From the NCBI RefSeq assembly GCF_020685205.1, contig NZ_JAJERB010000003.1, positions 372,001 to 436,000 of the forward strand: 64,000 nt of DNA, written 5' to 3'. The first letter of the stretch is position 1, and every line of letters begins with the position of its first letter. The notes beneath the pieces are model-generated. The model was given only the letters and a program-made list of their open reading frames with translations, made no database searches and was not told where the DNA came from. A program made the position numbers and the translations under genes. The stretch comes from Hymenobacter translucens (GTDB taxonomy: Bacteria; Bacteroidota; Bacteroidia; Cytophagales; Hymenobacteraceae). Below, one piece after another: positions 6,789-42,591 of the stretch.

Positions 6789-7700
6789 TCACAAGTGCAC
6801 GGCCTGATAAGCCGCATCCCGCCGGAACCAGGTGAGCTGGCGCTTGGCGTAATGGCGGGTGTTGCGCTTGAGTAGGCGGATGGTTTCGGGCCAGTCGTAC
6901 AGGCCGTCGAGGAAGTCAAAGATTTCCTGGTAGCCAACGGTTTGCAGGGCGTTGTGGTGGCGGTACGGCAGCAAAGACTCCACCTCGGCCAGCAGCCCGT
7001 CCTTCAGCATCTGGTCTACGCGCCGGTCGATACGCTGGTAGAGCACTTCCCGCTCCCGGGTCAGCACGACCTTTACCACCCTGAACGGGCGCTGCACGGC
7101 CGGCTTGGCGGCGTGAAAGCTGGAAAACGGGCGGCCCGTTCCCCGGGTGACTTCCAGGGCCCGCACGATGCGCTGGGGGTTCTGCCGGTCGATGCGGGCG
7201 TGGGCAACGGGGTCGAGGCGGCCCAGCTCTTCCACCAAAGCCGGCAGCCCGTGCGCCGCTAATTCCTGCTGTATAGCGACCCGCACGGCCGGGTCGATGG
7301 CCGGCATGGCGTCGAACCCTTCGGTGACGGCCTGCAGGTACAGACCCGAGCCGCCGGTGAGAATGACGGTGCGGTGGCGCTGGAAAAGCGTGTCGAGCAA
7401 CGCCAAACAGTCGGTTTCGAAGCGGCCGGCATTGTACTCCTCGGTAATGGAGTGGGAATTGATGAAATGGTGGGGTATGCCCTGCATTTCATCGGGCGTA
7501 GGCTTGGCCGTACCGATGCTCAGCTCCCGGTAGAACTGCCGGGAATCAGCCGACACGATTTCCGTTTTCAGCTCCTGGGCCAGCCGTACGCAGAGCGCGG
7601 TTTTGCCCACGGCCGTCGGGCCACCCACCACCAGCAGCGTAGGCTCCGGAGTCTGGCGCAGGGTTTCCAGAATTACTTCCAGCTCAGCAGGCAGCTTCAT
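6789..7700 (-). CDS. miaA: tRNA dimethylallyltransferase
   Basis: 303 residues. MiaA transfers a dimethylallyl group to A37 of tRNAs that read codons starting with U. GGPTAVGKT at 26-34 is the P-loop, VSADSRQFYRELSIGTAKP the dimethylallyl-PP/tRNA-binding segment, ILTGGSGLYLQAVTEG the next conserved block, and QNPQRIVRALEV and KRNTRHYAKRQLTWFRRD the C-terminal tRNA-binding signatures. The start codon abuts the stop codon of the upstream glycosyltransferase with no spacing (7698-7700 against 7701-7703), so the two are almost certainly cotranscribed and may be translationally coupled. Confidence 0.96.
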   Translation of the reverse strand: MKLPAELEVILETLRQTPEPTLLVVGGPTAVGKTALCVRLAQELKTEIVSADSRQFYRELSIGTAKPTPDEMQGIPHHFINSHSITEEYNAGRFETDCLALLDTLFQRHRTVILTGGSGLYLQAVTEGFDAMPAIDPAVRVAIQQELAAHGLPALVEELGRLDPVAHARIDRQNPQRIVRALEVTRGTGRPFSSFHAAKPAVQRPFRVVKVVLTREREVLYQRIDRRVDQMLKDGLLAEVESLLPYRHHNALQTVGYQEIFDFLDGLYDWPETIRLLKRNTRHYAKRQLTWFRRDAAYQAVHL

Positions 7701-16631: not shown

Positions 16632-16692
16632 GTTGTTAGTTGTTAGTTGTCAGAACGATACGAACAACGGACAACTAGCAACCGACAACTAA
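16632..16692. repeat. Palindromic array of AGTTGTC-like heptamers
   Basis: The left arm GTTGTTAGTTGTTAGTTGTC (16632-16651) is matched in inverted form by GGACAACTAGCAACCGACAA and following bases on the right (to 16692), imperfectly. The centre GTCAGAACGAT recurs in the 17.7 kb copy and at 38.3 kb. It belongs to the same dispersed family as 17731-17797 and 39552-39647. Confidence 0.75.
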
Positions 16693-38440: not shown

Positions 38441-38547
38441 AAAAACCGGAGCAACGGGCGGGCCGCAACTGACGGGCCGCAACTGACGGGGTACTCGCGT
38501 ACGTCCCGACAAGAAGGGTCGAAGCAGCGCGGACCTACGGCATCCGG
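38441..38547 (-). ncRNA. Y-RNA-like unit 8 (no tRNA-like body, own terminator)
   Basis: The 5' outer stem CCGGA (38547-38543) pairs with TCCGG (38450-38446), followed by TTTTT, so the outer stem doubles as an intrinsic terminator. Inside come TGCCGTAG, helix GTCCGCG/TGCGGCC, CTGCTTCGAC, and on the return strand CGCCCGTTGC. In place of a tRNA-like body there is a small hairpin (GTAC-GCGA-GTAC) and two direct copies of CCCGTCAGTTGCGG. It is the last unit before rtcB paralogue 2. Confidence 0.72.
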
Positions 38548-38556
38548 CGCAGGAAA

Positions 38557-38639
38557 GCAAGGGGCCCGGGCAACGGGTGAGCAGCTTCGGAATCAAGTGG
38601 CAGACGAAGAAATGCTGCTCCACGACACCGGGCCCTTGC
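38557..38639 (-). ncRNA. Y-RNA-like unit 7 (minimal form)
   Basis: 83 bases. The outer stem GCAAGGGCCCGG pairs with CCGGGCCCCTTGC (12 bp, one bulged C). Then come TGTCGTGG, helix AGCAGC/GCTGCT and the TTTCTTCGTC box, with CACCCGTTGC on the return strand. The terminal loop of about 28 bases has no T-arm, D-arm or acceptor-like helix. This is the shortest unit and shows the core shared by all eight. A short TTT follows the outer stem. Confidence 0.72.
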
Positions 38640-38646
38640 GCTACTT

Positions 38647-38785
38647 CCTGATCGGGCGACAGACGGACCGCCCTGAACTGGGCTCTGACCAGCTGAGCTA
38701 CCGCGCCCGAAGGCGCGGGAGGGACTCGAACCCCCGACCTCCACCGTCCCAAATGAAGTACGGCGGCCCTACGGCACCAGTCAGG
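38647..38785 (-). ncRNA. Y-RNA-like unit 6 with permuted tRNA-like body
   Basis: The outer stem CCTGACTGG pairs with CCCGATCAGG (one mismatch and a wobble). Box TGCCGTAG, helix GGCCGCC/GGCGGTC, box GTACTTCATT, return-strand box CGTCTGTCGC. The body is a circularly permuted tRNA. It runs T-arm first (GGGGG-TTCGAGT-CCCTC), then the 3' acceptor strand CCGCGCC, a TTCG tetraloop, the 5' acceptor strand GGCGCGG, TA, and a perfect D-arm (GCTCAGCTGGTCAGAGC). The acceptor stem pairs 7/7. It cannot be charged because no free 3' end exists at the acceptor. Confidence 0.82.
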
Positions 38786-38949
38786 AAAAACACGCTGCGT
38801 ACCGGGGCAACAAACGGCTGGCGTTGCCGACGCACCGGCAGACCGGGCGTCACCAGCAGCCGAAGCGCTGGGTGCGGGGCTTGAACCCGCTCAGCTCCCG
38901 AAAGAACCTTTACCGAAGTAGCGCCCGCCTACGGCACCCGGTCAGCAGC
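38786..38949 (-). ncRNA. Y-RNA-like unit 5 with permuted tRNA-like body and terminator
   Basis: The outer stem GCTGCTGACCGGG pairs with CCCGGTACGCAGC (11 of 13 positions, a 2x2 internal loop), followed by GTGTTTTT, an intrinsic terminator. Box TGCCGTAG, helix GCGGGCG/CGCCAGC (6 of 7), box CTACTTCGGT, return-strand box CGTTTGTTGC. The body has the T-arm GCGGG-TTCAAGC-CCCGC, then an acceptor-like helix CACCCAGC/GCTGGTG closed by GCTTCG, and a D-arm-like hairpin GACGC/GCGTC with a GG-containing loop. Confidence 0.8.
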
Positions 38950-38951
38950 AT

Positions 38952-39103
38952 AAAAAAAACTCGTTGGGGCAACAGGGCGCCCAGCCACCATATCCTGCTC
39001 TACCACTGAGCTACCGCCGCTCCGAAAAGCAACGAGAGGGATTCGAACCCCCGACCTGGGCGTTATCAGTGCGAAGTAAGGCTGGGCTACGGCACCCAAC
39101 GAG
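38952..39103 (-). ncRNA. Y-RNA-like unit 4 with permuted tRNA-like body and terminator
   Basis: The outer stem CTCGTTGGG pairs perfectly with CCCAACGAG and is followed by eight Ts, giving a clear 3' end at about 38952. Box TGCCGTAG, helix CCCAGCC/GGCTGGG (7/7), box TTACTTCGCA, return-strand box CGCCCTGTTGC. The body has the T-arm GGGGG-TTCGAAT-CCCTC, then the acceptor helix TCGTTGC/GCGGCGG (7/7 with wobbles) closed by TTTTCGGA, TA, and the D-arm GCTCAGTGGTAGAGC. It is the clearest complete unit of the array. Confidence 0.85.
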
Positions 39104-39112
39104 GTAAGGTAT

Positions 39113-39258
39113 ATTCAGGGCAACACGCGAAATGCCCTAACAGCTGGCGCGACTACCTGACGCGGCCCGCTATCCGATGGCAGCGGGGCGGGATTCGAAC
39201 CCGCCTGCCTTGCGGCTTCCAGCTCCGGCGAAGGAATGCACTCCTACGGCACCTGAAT
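39113..39258 (-). ncRNA. Y-RNA-like unit 3 with permuted tRNA-like body
   Basis: The outer stem ATTCAGG pairs perfectly with CCTGAAT. Box TGCCGTAG, helix GAGTGC/GCATTT (wobbles), box ATTCCTTCGCC, return-strand box CGCGTGTTGC. The body has the T-arm GCGGG-TTCGAAT-CCCGC (perfect), the acceptor helix CCCGCTG/TAGCGGG (7/7) closed by CCATCGGA, then CC and the D-arm GCG-TCAGGTAGT-CGC. No T-tract follows, so its 3' end would come from processing or from the terminator of unit 4. Confidence 0.8.
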
Positions 39259-39272
39259 GATTGTTAACAACA

Positions 39273-39410
39273 CGGCGGGGTAACAGGAAGAAAGCGCGGC
39301 CGAAGCCATTCTGCTCTAACCAGCTGAGCTACTCCGGTTGCCCGAAATAGCAGCCGAAGGCGGGGCTCGAACCCACGACCCGAAGGAACGCTTCCCGACG
39401 ACACCCGCCG
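39273..39410 (-). ncRNA. Y-RNA-like unit 2 with permuted tRNA-like body
   Basis: The outer stem CGGCGGG pairs perfectly with CCCGCCG. Box TGTCGTCG, helix GGAAGCG/CGCTTTC (7/7 with one wobble), box TTCCTTCGGG, return-strand box TTCCTGTTAC. The body has the T-arm GTGGG-TTCGAGC-CCCGC, an extended acceptor-like helix CTTCGGCTGC/GCAACCGGAG (9 of 10) closed by TATTTCGG, then TA and the D-arm GCTCAGCTGGTTAGAGC (perfect). No T-tract follows. Confidence 0.8.
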
Positions 39411-39434
39411 GATTTGTTGATGAGAACCAGTACG

Positions 39435-39541
39435 GCAGGGACAACAGGCGCGGGGTGCGTTTGGGAGTCGAACCCGCTGACCGCCGCCGGAGCTGCGGAC
39501 AGTTCTACCAGGCGAAGTATCACCCCGCTACGGCACCCTGC
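39435..39541 (-). ncRNA. Y-RNA-like unit 1 with non-permuted tRNA-like body
   Basis: The outer stem GCAGGG pairs with CCCTGC. Box TGCCGTAG, helix CGGGGTG/CACCCCG (7/7), box ATACTTCGCC, return-strand box CGCCTGTTGT. Here the second helix itself serves as the acceptor stem of a 77-base tRNA-like body in normal order: a D-arm-like TTC-GCCTGGTA-GAA, an anticodon-like arm CTGTCCGC/GCGGTCAG with one T-T mismatch and a 10-base loop, then a GGG-TTCGACT-CCC T-arm. The acceptor sequence resembles Bacteroidota tRNA-Pro. It is first in the array, after the TROVE gene. Confidence 0.72.
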
Positions 39542-39551
39542 TGAATGGACT

Positions 39552-39647
39552 GGTTGTCAGTTGTATGAGTTGGCAGTTGTCCGTTGATAGTTGTCCGTTG
39601 TCAGTGCTCTGCTATCCTTTTACCGGACAACGGACAACTGACAACTA
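39552..39647. repeat. Palindromic array of AGTTGTC-like heptamers
   Basis: The left side repeats TTGTCAG/TTGTCCG units. AGTTGTCCGTTGTC (39589-39602) is exactly complementary to GACAACGGACAACT (39626-39639) across a 23-base loop. It separates the TROVE gene from the RNA array and matches the arrays at 16.6 and 17.7 kb. Confidence 0.8.
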
Positions 39648-41310: not shown

Positions 41311-42591
41311 CTAAGCGTAGTCGGAGAGGCTGAGCTGGGCCTGGTCGGCCCAGCGCGTCAGCCAGAGCTGCTCGGTGGAAGTCATATCCCGGTTGAAGCG
41401 GCCCCGGACCTGCACGATGGAGCGGTTGGGCAACACTTCCAGGGTCAGCGTCCGCACCCCGTCGATGAGCACGGTGAAGATGCCGCAGCGCCCTTTCTGG
41501 CAGGAATTCAGGTAAGAAGCCACGCAGTGGCGCAGGGTCCGGCCTTCCAGCACCAGCTCCTCGTAGGTGAGCAGCTGGGTGATGAGCACCCGTTGGTCGG
41601 CGCCGCTCACGAAGTTGCTGACCGGCAGGCCCGTCCAGGAAGTGGAAAGCAGCTCCCCGCCGTGGCGGCGGTTGTGCGCCAGTCCCCGGTGCCACCGCTC
41701 GGTCTGAGCAAGCAGGCTTTCCATGGAGCGTCCTTTCAGGCTGAACCCCGGCTGGGGCGGCTCGGTCCCGATGCCAACCGTGCGCTTCTGGTGAATCCAG
41801 TCGCACACCGGCCCGAACTGCCGGGGGTCGACCATGGGCGTGGCGGCAAAAAAGTCGACCACGCCCAGCCAGAAAGAATCATCCGGGCCGATTTCCCGGC
41901 CCCAGGCGGTCTGCATCACTGGCCGCAGCCAGGGCAGAGCCCCCCGAACGGACAGTTGGGCGTAGCGCAGGGCTTCGACGAAGCTGCTGCCCGCCGGGGC
42001 CTGGCGCATCTCGTGCTCCAGCCGCCGGGTAAGTGGCACCGGCAGGCCCGGGAAGGAGTGCAGGCTCTGGCCCTGCCCCAGATGAATGGTCAGCTGAGCC
42101 AGGTCCACGCCGGCACTGATCAGCTCGCCGGAAACCCAGGCTTCGAGCACCCAGGCCGGCACGTCGCCGTAGCCGTCGTAGAGGTGGCGCACCAGGCTGA
42201 CCAGCTGCCGGAACGTATTGCGGCTTTTTGGCTTCCAGTCGGTCAGCTCGGCCTGCCGGTGCCCGTAGAGGCGGGCCAGCACCCCAACCGCCGTCAGGGT
42301 TTCGGGCCGTTCGAGCAGCTCGGTGCGCCGGGTGGCCAGGGCCAGCAGCGCCTCCCGGGCCAGGGGCCGGTTATCGACCGGCACGCTCATTACCCAGTGC
42401 TGGTAGCGCAGGGCCAGCGGGGAGTCGGGGTCGATGCGGCGGTGGAGTTCCTGCATGGTAGCGCAGGAAAAAAGTAGATCGATCTGCTGCCCGGCGGTTT
42501 GCTTGTAGAAGTCGGCGTGCCGGGCCAGGGCGGCTAGGGCTTGGCGGGTTTCCCAGGACTGCTGGGAGAAGCGTTTTTTGCGGTTAGACAT
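41311..42591 (-). CDS. PcfJ-like protein
   Basis: 426 residues, no signal peptide. The N-terminal 300 residues are mostly helical and unassigned. At about 335-380 lies the PcfJ-type core LTYEELVLEGRTLRHCVASY followed by LNSCQKGRCGIFTVL, where the HCVxSY block and the G-x-[IVC]-x-[IV] strand are characteristic. PcfJ proteins are known from conjugative and phage elements but have no proven activity. As the first gene of the minus-strand TROVE/RtcB cluster (78 bases before the TROVE gene) it is the best candidate for an additional protein partner of the RNA-repair locus. No mobile-element genes accompany it. Confidence 0.75.
   Translation of the reverse strand: MSNRKKRFSQQSWETRQALAALARHADFYKQTAGQQIDLLFSCATMQELHRRIDPDSPLALRYQHWVMSVPVDNRPLAREALLALATRRTELLERPETLTAVGVLARLYGHRQAELTDWKPKSRNTFRQLVSLVRHLYDGYGDVPAWVLEAWVSGELISAGVDLAQLTIHLGQGQSLHSFPGLPVPLTRRLEHEMRQAPAGSSFVEALRYAQLSVRGALPWLRPVMQTAWGREIGPDDSFWLGVVDFFAATPMVDPRQFGPVCDWIHQKRTVGIGTEPPQPGFSLKGRSMESLLAQTERWHRGLAHNRRHGGELLSTSWTGLPVSNFVSGADQRVLITQLLTYEELVLEGRTLRHCVASYLNSCQKGRCGIFTVLIDGVRTLTLEVLPNRSIVQVRGRFNRDMTSTEQLWLTRWADQAQLSLSDYA

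What the first reader, a model, noticed from the sequence alone, without database searches (positions are those of the whole stretch)
38441..39541. Tandem array of eight Y-RNA-like structured RNAs between a Ro60 (TROVE) gene and rtcB
Seen directly: on the minus strand eight consecutive units of 83-164 bases, 0-24 bases apart, share the same plan. This is an outer stem, TGYCGTNG, a helix of about 7 bp, N-T-N-CTTCG, a variable body, the return helix, a CGNN[CT]GTTG-type box and the outer stem again. Both stems differ in sequence from unit to unit yet keep pairing, which is covariation evidence for a real fold. Established: bacterial Ro60 proteins bind Y RNAs, YrlA-type Y RNAs mimic tRNA, and rsr and rtcB genes are often linked. 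Inference: this is a Y-RNA gene family. An array of eight in one operon-like locus is far larger than the one or two Y RNAs I know of from well-studied bacteria.
Basis: partly seen in the sequence, partly recalled or inferred. Interest (0 to 1): 0.93.

Follow-up and report, generated by a model that had tools for sequence, protein, structure and literature searches.

The report
Eight-gene Y RNA set beside Ro60
Between the genes for the RNA-quality-control protein Ro60 and the RNA-repair enzyme RtcB, this Hymenobacter-like bacterium carries a row of eight different RNA units that are predicted to be Y RNAs; several contain rearranged tRNA parts, related bacteria keep the unit types in largely the same order, and the set would likely let one Ro60 ring be fitted with many RNA adaptors, more than the two of the well-studied Salmonella operon.

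Summary
In detail: eight minus-strand units (38446-39541), 94-146 nt by outer stem, 0-23 nt apart, lie between Ro60 (TROVE+vWA) and two rtcB genes. They share a Y-RNA-type stem and carry variable heads. In 40 units (37 of them from relatives) the stem, T-arm and acceptor helices covary (97.4% paired; score 0.636 vs 0.191 in shuffles); D-arm pairs hardly vary. U2, U4 and U6 carry circularly permuted tRNA-like heads as in YrlA, yet Rfam's YrlA model gives at most 37 bits (cut-off 69). Unit types keep a near-fixed order across the genus. Of 345 Bacteroidota genomes 22 have Pfam TROVE and 22 strong RNA-model hits; 20 coincide, and the other two hit genomes have a divergent Ro60 beside the RNA. One genome without an intact Ro60 holds a Ro60 fragment and eroded units. 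I conclude these are genuine Ro60-linked Y RNA genes, most likely an adaptor set; expression, Ro60 binding and head function are untested. The kind is known; the large, ordered, diversified set is a new variant. The central Y RNA papers were not held, so priority is open.

The parts
39435..39541 (-). U1: Y stem, head with a T-arm motif, 107 nt
   Evidence: R2 52.7 bits, R1 45 bits
39273..39411 (-). U2: Y stem with permuted tRNA-like head (class E); both arms share 19/19 stretches with the host's tRNA-His
   Evidence: R1 103.2 bits; YrlA 31.5 bits at 39308-39384, below cut-off
39113..39258 (-). U3: Y stem, T-arm and a variant D-arm-like hairpin (class F)
   Evidence: R1 65 bits
38960..39103 (-). 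U4: Y stem with permuted tRNA-like head (class A)
   Evidence: R1 128.4 bits; YrlA 29.4 bits, below cut-off
38801..38942 (-). U5: Y stem, head with T-arm (class I)
   Evidence: R1 47.5 bits
38646..38786 (-). U6: Y stem with permuted tRNA-like head whose acceptor is closed by a UUCG loop (class C)
   Evidence: R1 111.8 bits; YrlA 37.2 bits at 38682-38739, below cut-off
38548..38641 (-). U7: Y stem with short head, no tRNA arms
   Evidence: R2 43.9 bits; not found by R1
38446..38547 (-). U8: Y stem with short head (class D), followed by a T run
   Evidence: R2 40 bits, R1 36 bits
39703..41232 (-). Ro60 (TROVE and vWA), 509 aa, upstream of the array
   Evidence: Pfam TROVE 101 bits, vWA_Ro60 31.3 bits
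36813..38213 (-). RtcB RNA ligase, first copy, 466 aa
   Evidence: Pfam RtcB 273.5 bits
35206..36645 (-). RtcB RNA ligase, second copy, 479 aa from the ATG chosen
   Evidence: Pfam RtcB 280.6 bits
41311..42591 (-). PcfJ-like protein, 426 aa, upstream of Ro60; function unknown
   Evidence: Pfam PcfJ 47.8 bits

Best explanation
The stretch between the Ro60 and RtcB genes holds eight tandem RNA units of several head types that are predicted to be Y RNAs: each would clamp the outside of the Ro60 ring through a shared covarying stem and likely present a different head, permuted tRNA-like in three units and short in two, that would steer the ring to different RNA-processing partners. Shown here: the anatomy, the covariation, the permuted heads, distinct unit types kept in near-fixed order across the genus, and tight co-occurrence with Ro60. 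Inferred: transcription as one precursor, Ro60 binding through the UGCCGUAG/GUUGC internal loop, and what the heads do. By analogy with the published Ro60-Y RNA-PNPase machine and YrlA, the tRNA-like heads would bring PNPase or tRNA-handling enzymes to RNAs held by Ro60, next to the RtcB ligases, while the short-headed units would act mainly as gates on the ring.
For: Covariation: 23 of 31 pairs with compensatory change, 97.4% paired against 38-48% when slid and score 0.636 against 0.191; Y stem alone 0.739 against 0.222. Permuted T-arm/acceptor/D-arm as in YrlA. Eight main types, order concordance 95.6% of 753 pairs against at most 62.3% shuffled; 407 of 411 units match best in another genome. 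Link to Ro60: 85 of 86 Ro60-positive against 1 of 34 Ro60-negative genomes of the genus have three or more motif hits; 20 genomes shared between 22 TROVE and 22 R1 genomes of 345, and both R1-only genomes hold a divergent Ro60 beside the RNA. A Ro60 fragment beside two eroded units in G084. Published adaptor role of the YrlA head (PMC8394870, passages) and rsr-yrlBA-rtcBA operon (PMC7790460, passages).
Against: No transcription or binding data. Rfam YrlA stays below its cut-off. The Ro60 is a distant relative of Rsr (39.6 of 900 bits). R1 also rings on tandem tRNA genes at weak E-values (33 of 34 Ro60-negative genomes at E 0.01). One TROVE genome, G473, shows no unit near Ro60, and the second Ro60 of G030 has none. 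Conserved order partly reflects shared descent. Nothing here shows that different heads have different partners.
Confidence: 0.62

Rival explanations
1. The units are Y RNAs, but the tRNA-like heads are decoys: they would soak up tRNA-attacking nucleases or tRNA-binding enzymes, with Ro60 mainly protecting them.
For: Heads copy the tRNA elbow almost letter for letter. The Salmonella authors name a competitive-inhibitor role for YrlA as a possibility (PMC7790460, passages). The loci are next to RtcB.
Against: The heads have no anticodon arm, which anticodon nucleases would need (inference); short-headed units and conserved types are not explained.
Confidence: 0.15
2. The units are redundant Y RNAs with one and the same job (gating or dosage); the head differences are drift.
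For: Copy number varies from 2 to 9 per locus, and types are gained and lost.
Against: Types are conserved as orthologues in a fixed order (95.6%) with T-arm helices that covary, which drift would not keep.
Confidence: 0.12
3. The array is a cis-acting leader that controls the downstream rtcB mRNA and does not work as free RNAs.
For: It lies directly upstream of rtcB on the same strand; RtcB follows in 75 of 77 genus loci.
Against: In Pontibacter loci L155, L157 and L165 the units sit just downstream of Ro60 while RtcB is some 4 kb upstream of it; in L183 five units lie upstream of Ro60; several loci show no RtcB in the stretch held.
Confidence: 0.04
4. The units are relics of duplicated tRNA genes without function of their own.
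For: T-arm and D-arm letters are tRNA-like, and some relatives have tRNA genes in the same stretch.
Against: Permuted order; compensatory changes in 23 of 31 pairs; no tRNA match over the cut-off inside the array; erosion seen where Ro60 is lost.
Confidence: 0.02

Closest known systems
YrlA bacterial Y RNA (Rfam RF02553; Salmonella rsr-yrlBA-rtcBA operon)
   Same: Paired ends forming a Ro60-binding stem, permuted tRNA-like head, linkage to Ro60 and RtcB.
   Different: Eight units instead of yrlB and yrlA; several head types, two of the eight units short; scores under the Rfam cut-off (37.2 of 69 bits); an invariant U-N-CUUCG after the inner helix.
Animal Y RNAs (four in humans)
   Same: Small RNAs with a terminal stem holding a conserved internal loop around GGU(N)CCG; several per species (PMC11277228, passages).
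   Different: No tRNA-like head described in the passages seen; separate genes in human, a tandem array here. No match to animal Y RNA models was listed (E up to 5).
Deinococcus Rsr-Y RNA-PNPase machine (RYPER)
   Same: What it may work like: an RNA tether between Ro60 and an exoribonuclease (PMC7790460 and PMC8394870, passages).
   Different: PNPase recruitment is not shown here; many RNAs per Ro60.
Putative Y RNAs of Listeria phage CKA15
   Same: Three highly transcribed regions near an Rsr-like gene, suggested by the authors to be Y RNAs (PMC12282133, passages).
   Different: Not established there as Y RNAs; I did not compare the sequences.

Membership tests
Y RNA (functional class) | Paired 5' and 3' ends with a conserved internal loop in the stem | tested here: met
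Y RNA (functional class) | Genes associated with a Ro60 gene | tested here: met
Y RNA (functional class) | Made as a small RNA and bound by Ro60 | not testable with these tools
   no RNA or binding data held
Rfam YrlA (RF02553) | Circularly permuted T-arm, closed acceptor, D-arm in the head | tested here: met
   U2, U4 and U6; not U7 or U8; partial or variant in U1, U3 and U5
Rfam YrlA (RF02553) | Score at or above the curated cut-off of 69 bits | tested here: not met
   best 37.2 bits; no YrlA match at the cut-off in 10 relatives' loci either
YrlA (function) | Head binds PNPase and is modified by DusA and TruB | not testable with these tools
   published for YrlA (PMC8394870, passages)
tRNA | Score over the tRNA cut-off with arms in standard order | tested here: not met
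   ARAGORN finds one tRNA in the window, outside the array; none of the genome's 40 tRNA matches lies in the array

The most novel reading that the evidence does not exclude
A whole lineage of bacteria runs Ro60 as a programmable ring: an ordered, inherited set of up to nine Y RNA adaptors, each type with its own head (ordinary tRNA mimics, a Leu-type mimic, half mimics, short gates), shares out tRNA surveillance and repair among partners beside RtcB, and in some relatives is built into one stretch with real tRNA genes so that tRNA processing would free the adaptors.
Probability: 0.35. Interest if true: 0.9.

Novelty: new variant of a known kind. Interest (0 to 1): 0.72.

Why it matters
Why bacterial Y RNAs mimic tRNA is still open. 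A natural set of distinct, orthologous Y RNA types beside one Ro60, not found by Rfam at its cut-offs in the loci scanned, together with loss cases and mixed tRNA/Y RNA loci, makes the question of what a head does directly testable by deleting or swapping single units. The covariance model also pointed to two Ro60 loci that the Pfam search at E 1e-8 passed over. Bacteroides thetaiotaomicron Ro60 particles with their Y RNAs are recognised by lupus patients' antibodies (PMC11277228, passages), so better Y RNA annotation in this phylum is useful.

Tried and rejected
Real tRNA genes: rejected (best tRNA score in the array 20.6 of 29 bits). Cis leader of rtcB: the units follow Ro60 and not RtcB outside the genus. 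Virus-borne arrays: a scan of viral contigs gave 74 stretches with one match each and no array (the 74 were not examined one by one). Defence system: no PADLOC hit for PcfJ, Ro60 or either RtcB. Separate sigma-70 promoters: none found; terminator-like sites 4 against 2.2 (sd 1.4) in shuffles, not informative. The microRNA hits beside U1 come from an inverted repeat. The unit-finder cut of 30 proved leaky, so claims rest on cut 40, the motif and the models; the class and order statistics do use the 411 units at cut 30. R1 is not specific in whole genomes at weak E-values, because tandem tRNA genes mimic the head. Literature: ten searches listed no title or abstract reporting such arrays, and 'Hymenobacter' with 'Y RNA' gave no paper; I read passages of five papers only. 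Chen 2014, Sim and Wolin 2018 and Wang 2018 are not held, so an earlier description of multi-copy loci cannot be excluded.

Full report
What is there. On the minus strand the order is PcfJ-like gene, Ro60 (TROVE + vWA), eight RNA units, rtcB, rtcB. Bounded by their outer stems the units are U1 39435-39541, U2 39273-39411, U3 39113-39258, U4 38960-39103, U5 38801-38942, U6 38646-38786, U7 38548-38641, U8 38446-38547. Each reads: outer stem, UGYCGUNG, inner helix, usually U-N-CUUCG, head, return helix, a GUUGC-type box, outer stem. The nearest named Ro60 loci are Hymenobacter, so the window is Hymenobacter or close to it (inference).

Is it more than chance. I fetched 76 Ro60 loci from 75 of the 85 other Ro60-positive genomes of the genus (86 of 120 genomes are positive with the window's own) and added the window: 77 loci, 443 boxes between Ro60 and RtcB. 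A stem score of 40 is reached by 321 of 443, against 0 of 389 boxes elsewhere or on the other strand and 0 of 106 in shuffled intervals. At the looser cut of 30 it is 411 of 443 against 80 of 389 and 7 of 106. U-N-CUUC at +16 occurs in 405 of 443 against 0 of 389. The 411 units make 2-9 per locus, median 5; 68 of 77 loci have four or more, and one has none, the second, divergent Ro60 copy of G030.

Fold. An alignment of 40 units with both T-arm and D-arm (A1; 37 from relatives, 3 from the window) yields, without guidance, the Y stem, T-arm, acceptor and D-arm; 23 of 31 pairs show compensatory change. 97.4% of cells pair, against 38-48% when slid, and the covariation score is 0.636 against 0.191 (sd 0.011) in shuffles. 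Related sequences inflate such scores, but the slid control keeps relatedness. The D-arm helix hardly varies and says nothing either way. The Y stem alone, in 56 constructs of mixed classes with heads removed, gives 93.3% paired and 0.739 against 0.222; one weaker measure there (pairs with change on both sides) was reached by 10 of 500 shuffles. Inside the loop, position +2 and its partner read C-G 318, U-A 55, U-G 32 and unpaired 6 of 411. I take the invariant C that follows as the counterpart of the bulged base in GGUCCGA of human Y RNAs (PMC11277228, passages); this is inference.

Heads. U2, U4 and U6 carry T-arm, closed acceptor and D-arm in permuted order, as in YrlA; that YrlA is a circular permutation of tRNA is published (PMC11472068, passages). 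Rfam's YrlA model hits U6 at 37.2, U2 at 31.5, U4 at 29.4 and U3 at 22.1 bits, under its cut-off of 69; the window has no match at the cut-offs. Against 35 distinct tRNA sequences that ARAGORN found in the stretches around the best 30 of the genome's 40 tRNA matches, U2 shares 19/19 stretches of both arms with tRNA-His, U4 18/18 with tRNA-Ser (T-arm) and 18/18 with tRNA-Thr (D-arm), and U6 25 of 27 with tRNA-Asp. So the elbow is copied, not one isoacceptor. U7 and U8 have short heads. Over the genus 294 of 411 units have the T-arm motif, 150 the GUAGCUCA-type D-arm and 111 neither; 23 of 37 class F units have a Leu-type D-arm motif (the name Leu-type is recalled).

A set, not a repeat. Reciprocal-best-hit clustering gives eight main types with 366 of the 411 units. 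Their order agrees in 95.6% of 753 pairs, against 57.5% (maximum 62.3%) in 500 shuffles; types C and D occur in both orders, 22 to 19. 407 of 411 units match best in another genome rather than in their own array. The types are therefore old and separately kept, although shared descent of whole loci adds to the order statistic. In the window U1 and U7 fell in no main class.

Link to Ro60. In the genus 85 of 86 Ro60-positive genomes have three or more hits of the strict motif, against 1 of 34 negatives (G079 has two; where the three hits of the negative G083 lie was not listed). Elsewhere in the family, 7 of 8 genomes of one further genus have 6-10 hits. In 345 Bacteroidota drawn evenly, Pfam TROVE at E 1e-8 marks 22 genomes and model R1 at E 1e-9 marks 22; 20 coincide, p 4e-28. 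The two R1-only genomes, G413 and G541, contain a Ro60 of 27% identity beside the RNA; of the two TROVE-only genomes, G237 has weaker R1 hits (38 bits at best) beside Ro60 and G473 has none. Of the 80 named loci, 33 have titles that do not say Hymenobacter; I tested 32 (Solirubrum left out), and all 32 have an R1 hit at E 2.2e-8 or better. By my hand count (E up to 0.1), 19 of 32 show three or more units, 8 two and 5 one, among them Pontibacter, Rufibacter, Cesiribacter, Flavobacterium, Niastella, Saprospiraceae and a MAG titled Prevotella. One Ro60-negative genome of the genus, G084, holds a match to the first 75 residues of Ro60, an rtcB match and two eroded units at 30.3 and 28.4 bits. G044 and G028 have only short Ro60 matches and still have units.

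Results against. R1 also answers to tandem tRNA genes: 33 of 34 Ro60-negative genomes matched at E 0.01 or better, best 50 bits, whereas arrays reach 139 bits; of 10 such stretches that I checked, 9 held neighbouring tRNA genes and the tenth was G084. There are no data on transcription or binding. The Ro60 protein is far from the Rsr equivalog model (39.6 of 900 bits).

How it most likely works. Published: Y RNAs bind the outside of Ro60 through the lower stem (PMC11277228, passages); the YrlA head binds PNPase and the complex degrades structured RNA (PMC8394870, passages); in Salmonella rsr, yrlBA and rtcBA form an operon switched on by tRNA fragments (PMC7790460, passages). I infer that the array is made as one transcript (gaps of 0-23 nt, no promoter-like site found), that each RNA occupies Ro60 through the shared stem, and that heads differ in partner, giving one ring several adaptors for surveillance and repair of tRNA and other structured RNA. 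Decoy and redundancy readings are not excluded.

Standing. A Y RNA locus by anatomy and association; outside Rfam's YrlA family by score; new in size, diversity and conserved order as far as the papers I could search show. The central Y RNA papers were not held, so priority is open.

Noticed in passing
L168:7767-8661 and L189:3436-4415: Tight alternation of real tRNA genes with Y-RNA-like units downstream of Ro60: in L168 five tRNA matches over the Rfam cut-off (Asp, Pro, Lys, Asn named by ARAGORN) mostly 0-5 nt from the units, in L189 tRNA-Met, -Arg and -Lys, two of them abutting units. It suggests release by tRNA processing. L168's record is titled Williamsia but its Ro60 is 62% identical to this one.
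   Followed up: partly
L031 and 30 further genus loci, between Ro60 and RtcB: A microbial-type PARG gene (PF10021, 150.8 bits for the L031 copy) lies between Ro60 and RtcB in 31 of 77 loci, not in the window.
   Followed up: partly
L187:4326-5825 and L188:7072-8622: Divergent Ro60 proteins (27% identity) found only because the RNA model hit next to them; RtcB matches also lie in both stretches.
   Followed up: partly
L315:5852-6479: Decaying locus in a Ro60-negative genome: Ro60 start fragment, two eroded units, then an rtcB match.
   Followed up: yes
window 39575-39646 and 16664-16676: Inverted repeat built of ACAACGGACAACT-like words between Ro60 and U1; the word also occurs near the tRNA-Leu gene (5 matches against 0.03 expected).
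   Followed up: no
window 41311-42591: PcfJ-like gene of unknown function upstream of Ro60; found upstream in 33 of 77 loci and downstream of Ro60 in 7, which hints at a functional tie.
   Followed up: partly
L078:4004-5350: A second, divergent Ro60 (33-35% identity) in G030 with no unit found beside it.
   Followed up: no
L183:2497-3192 and 7524-7599: In a MAG titled Prevotella five units lie upstream of Ro60 and one directly downstream.
   Followed up: no
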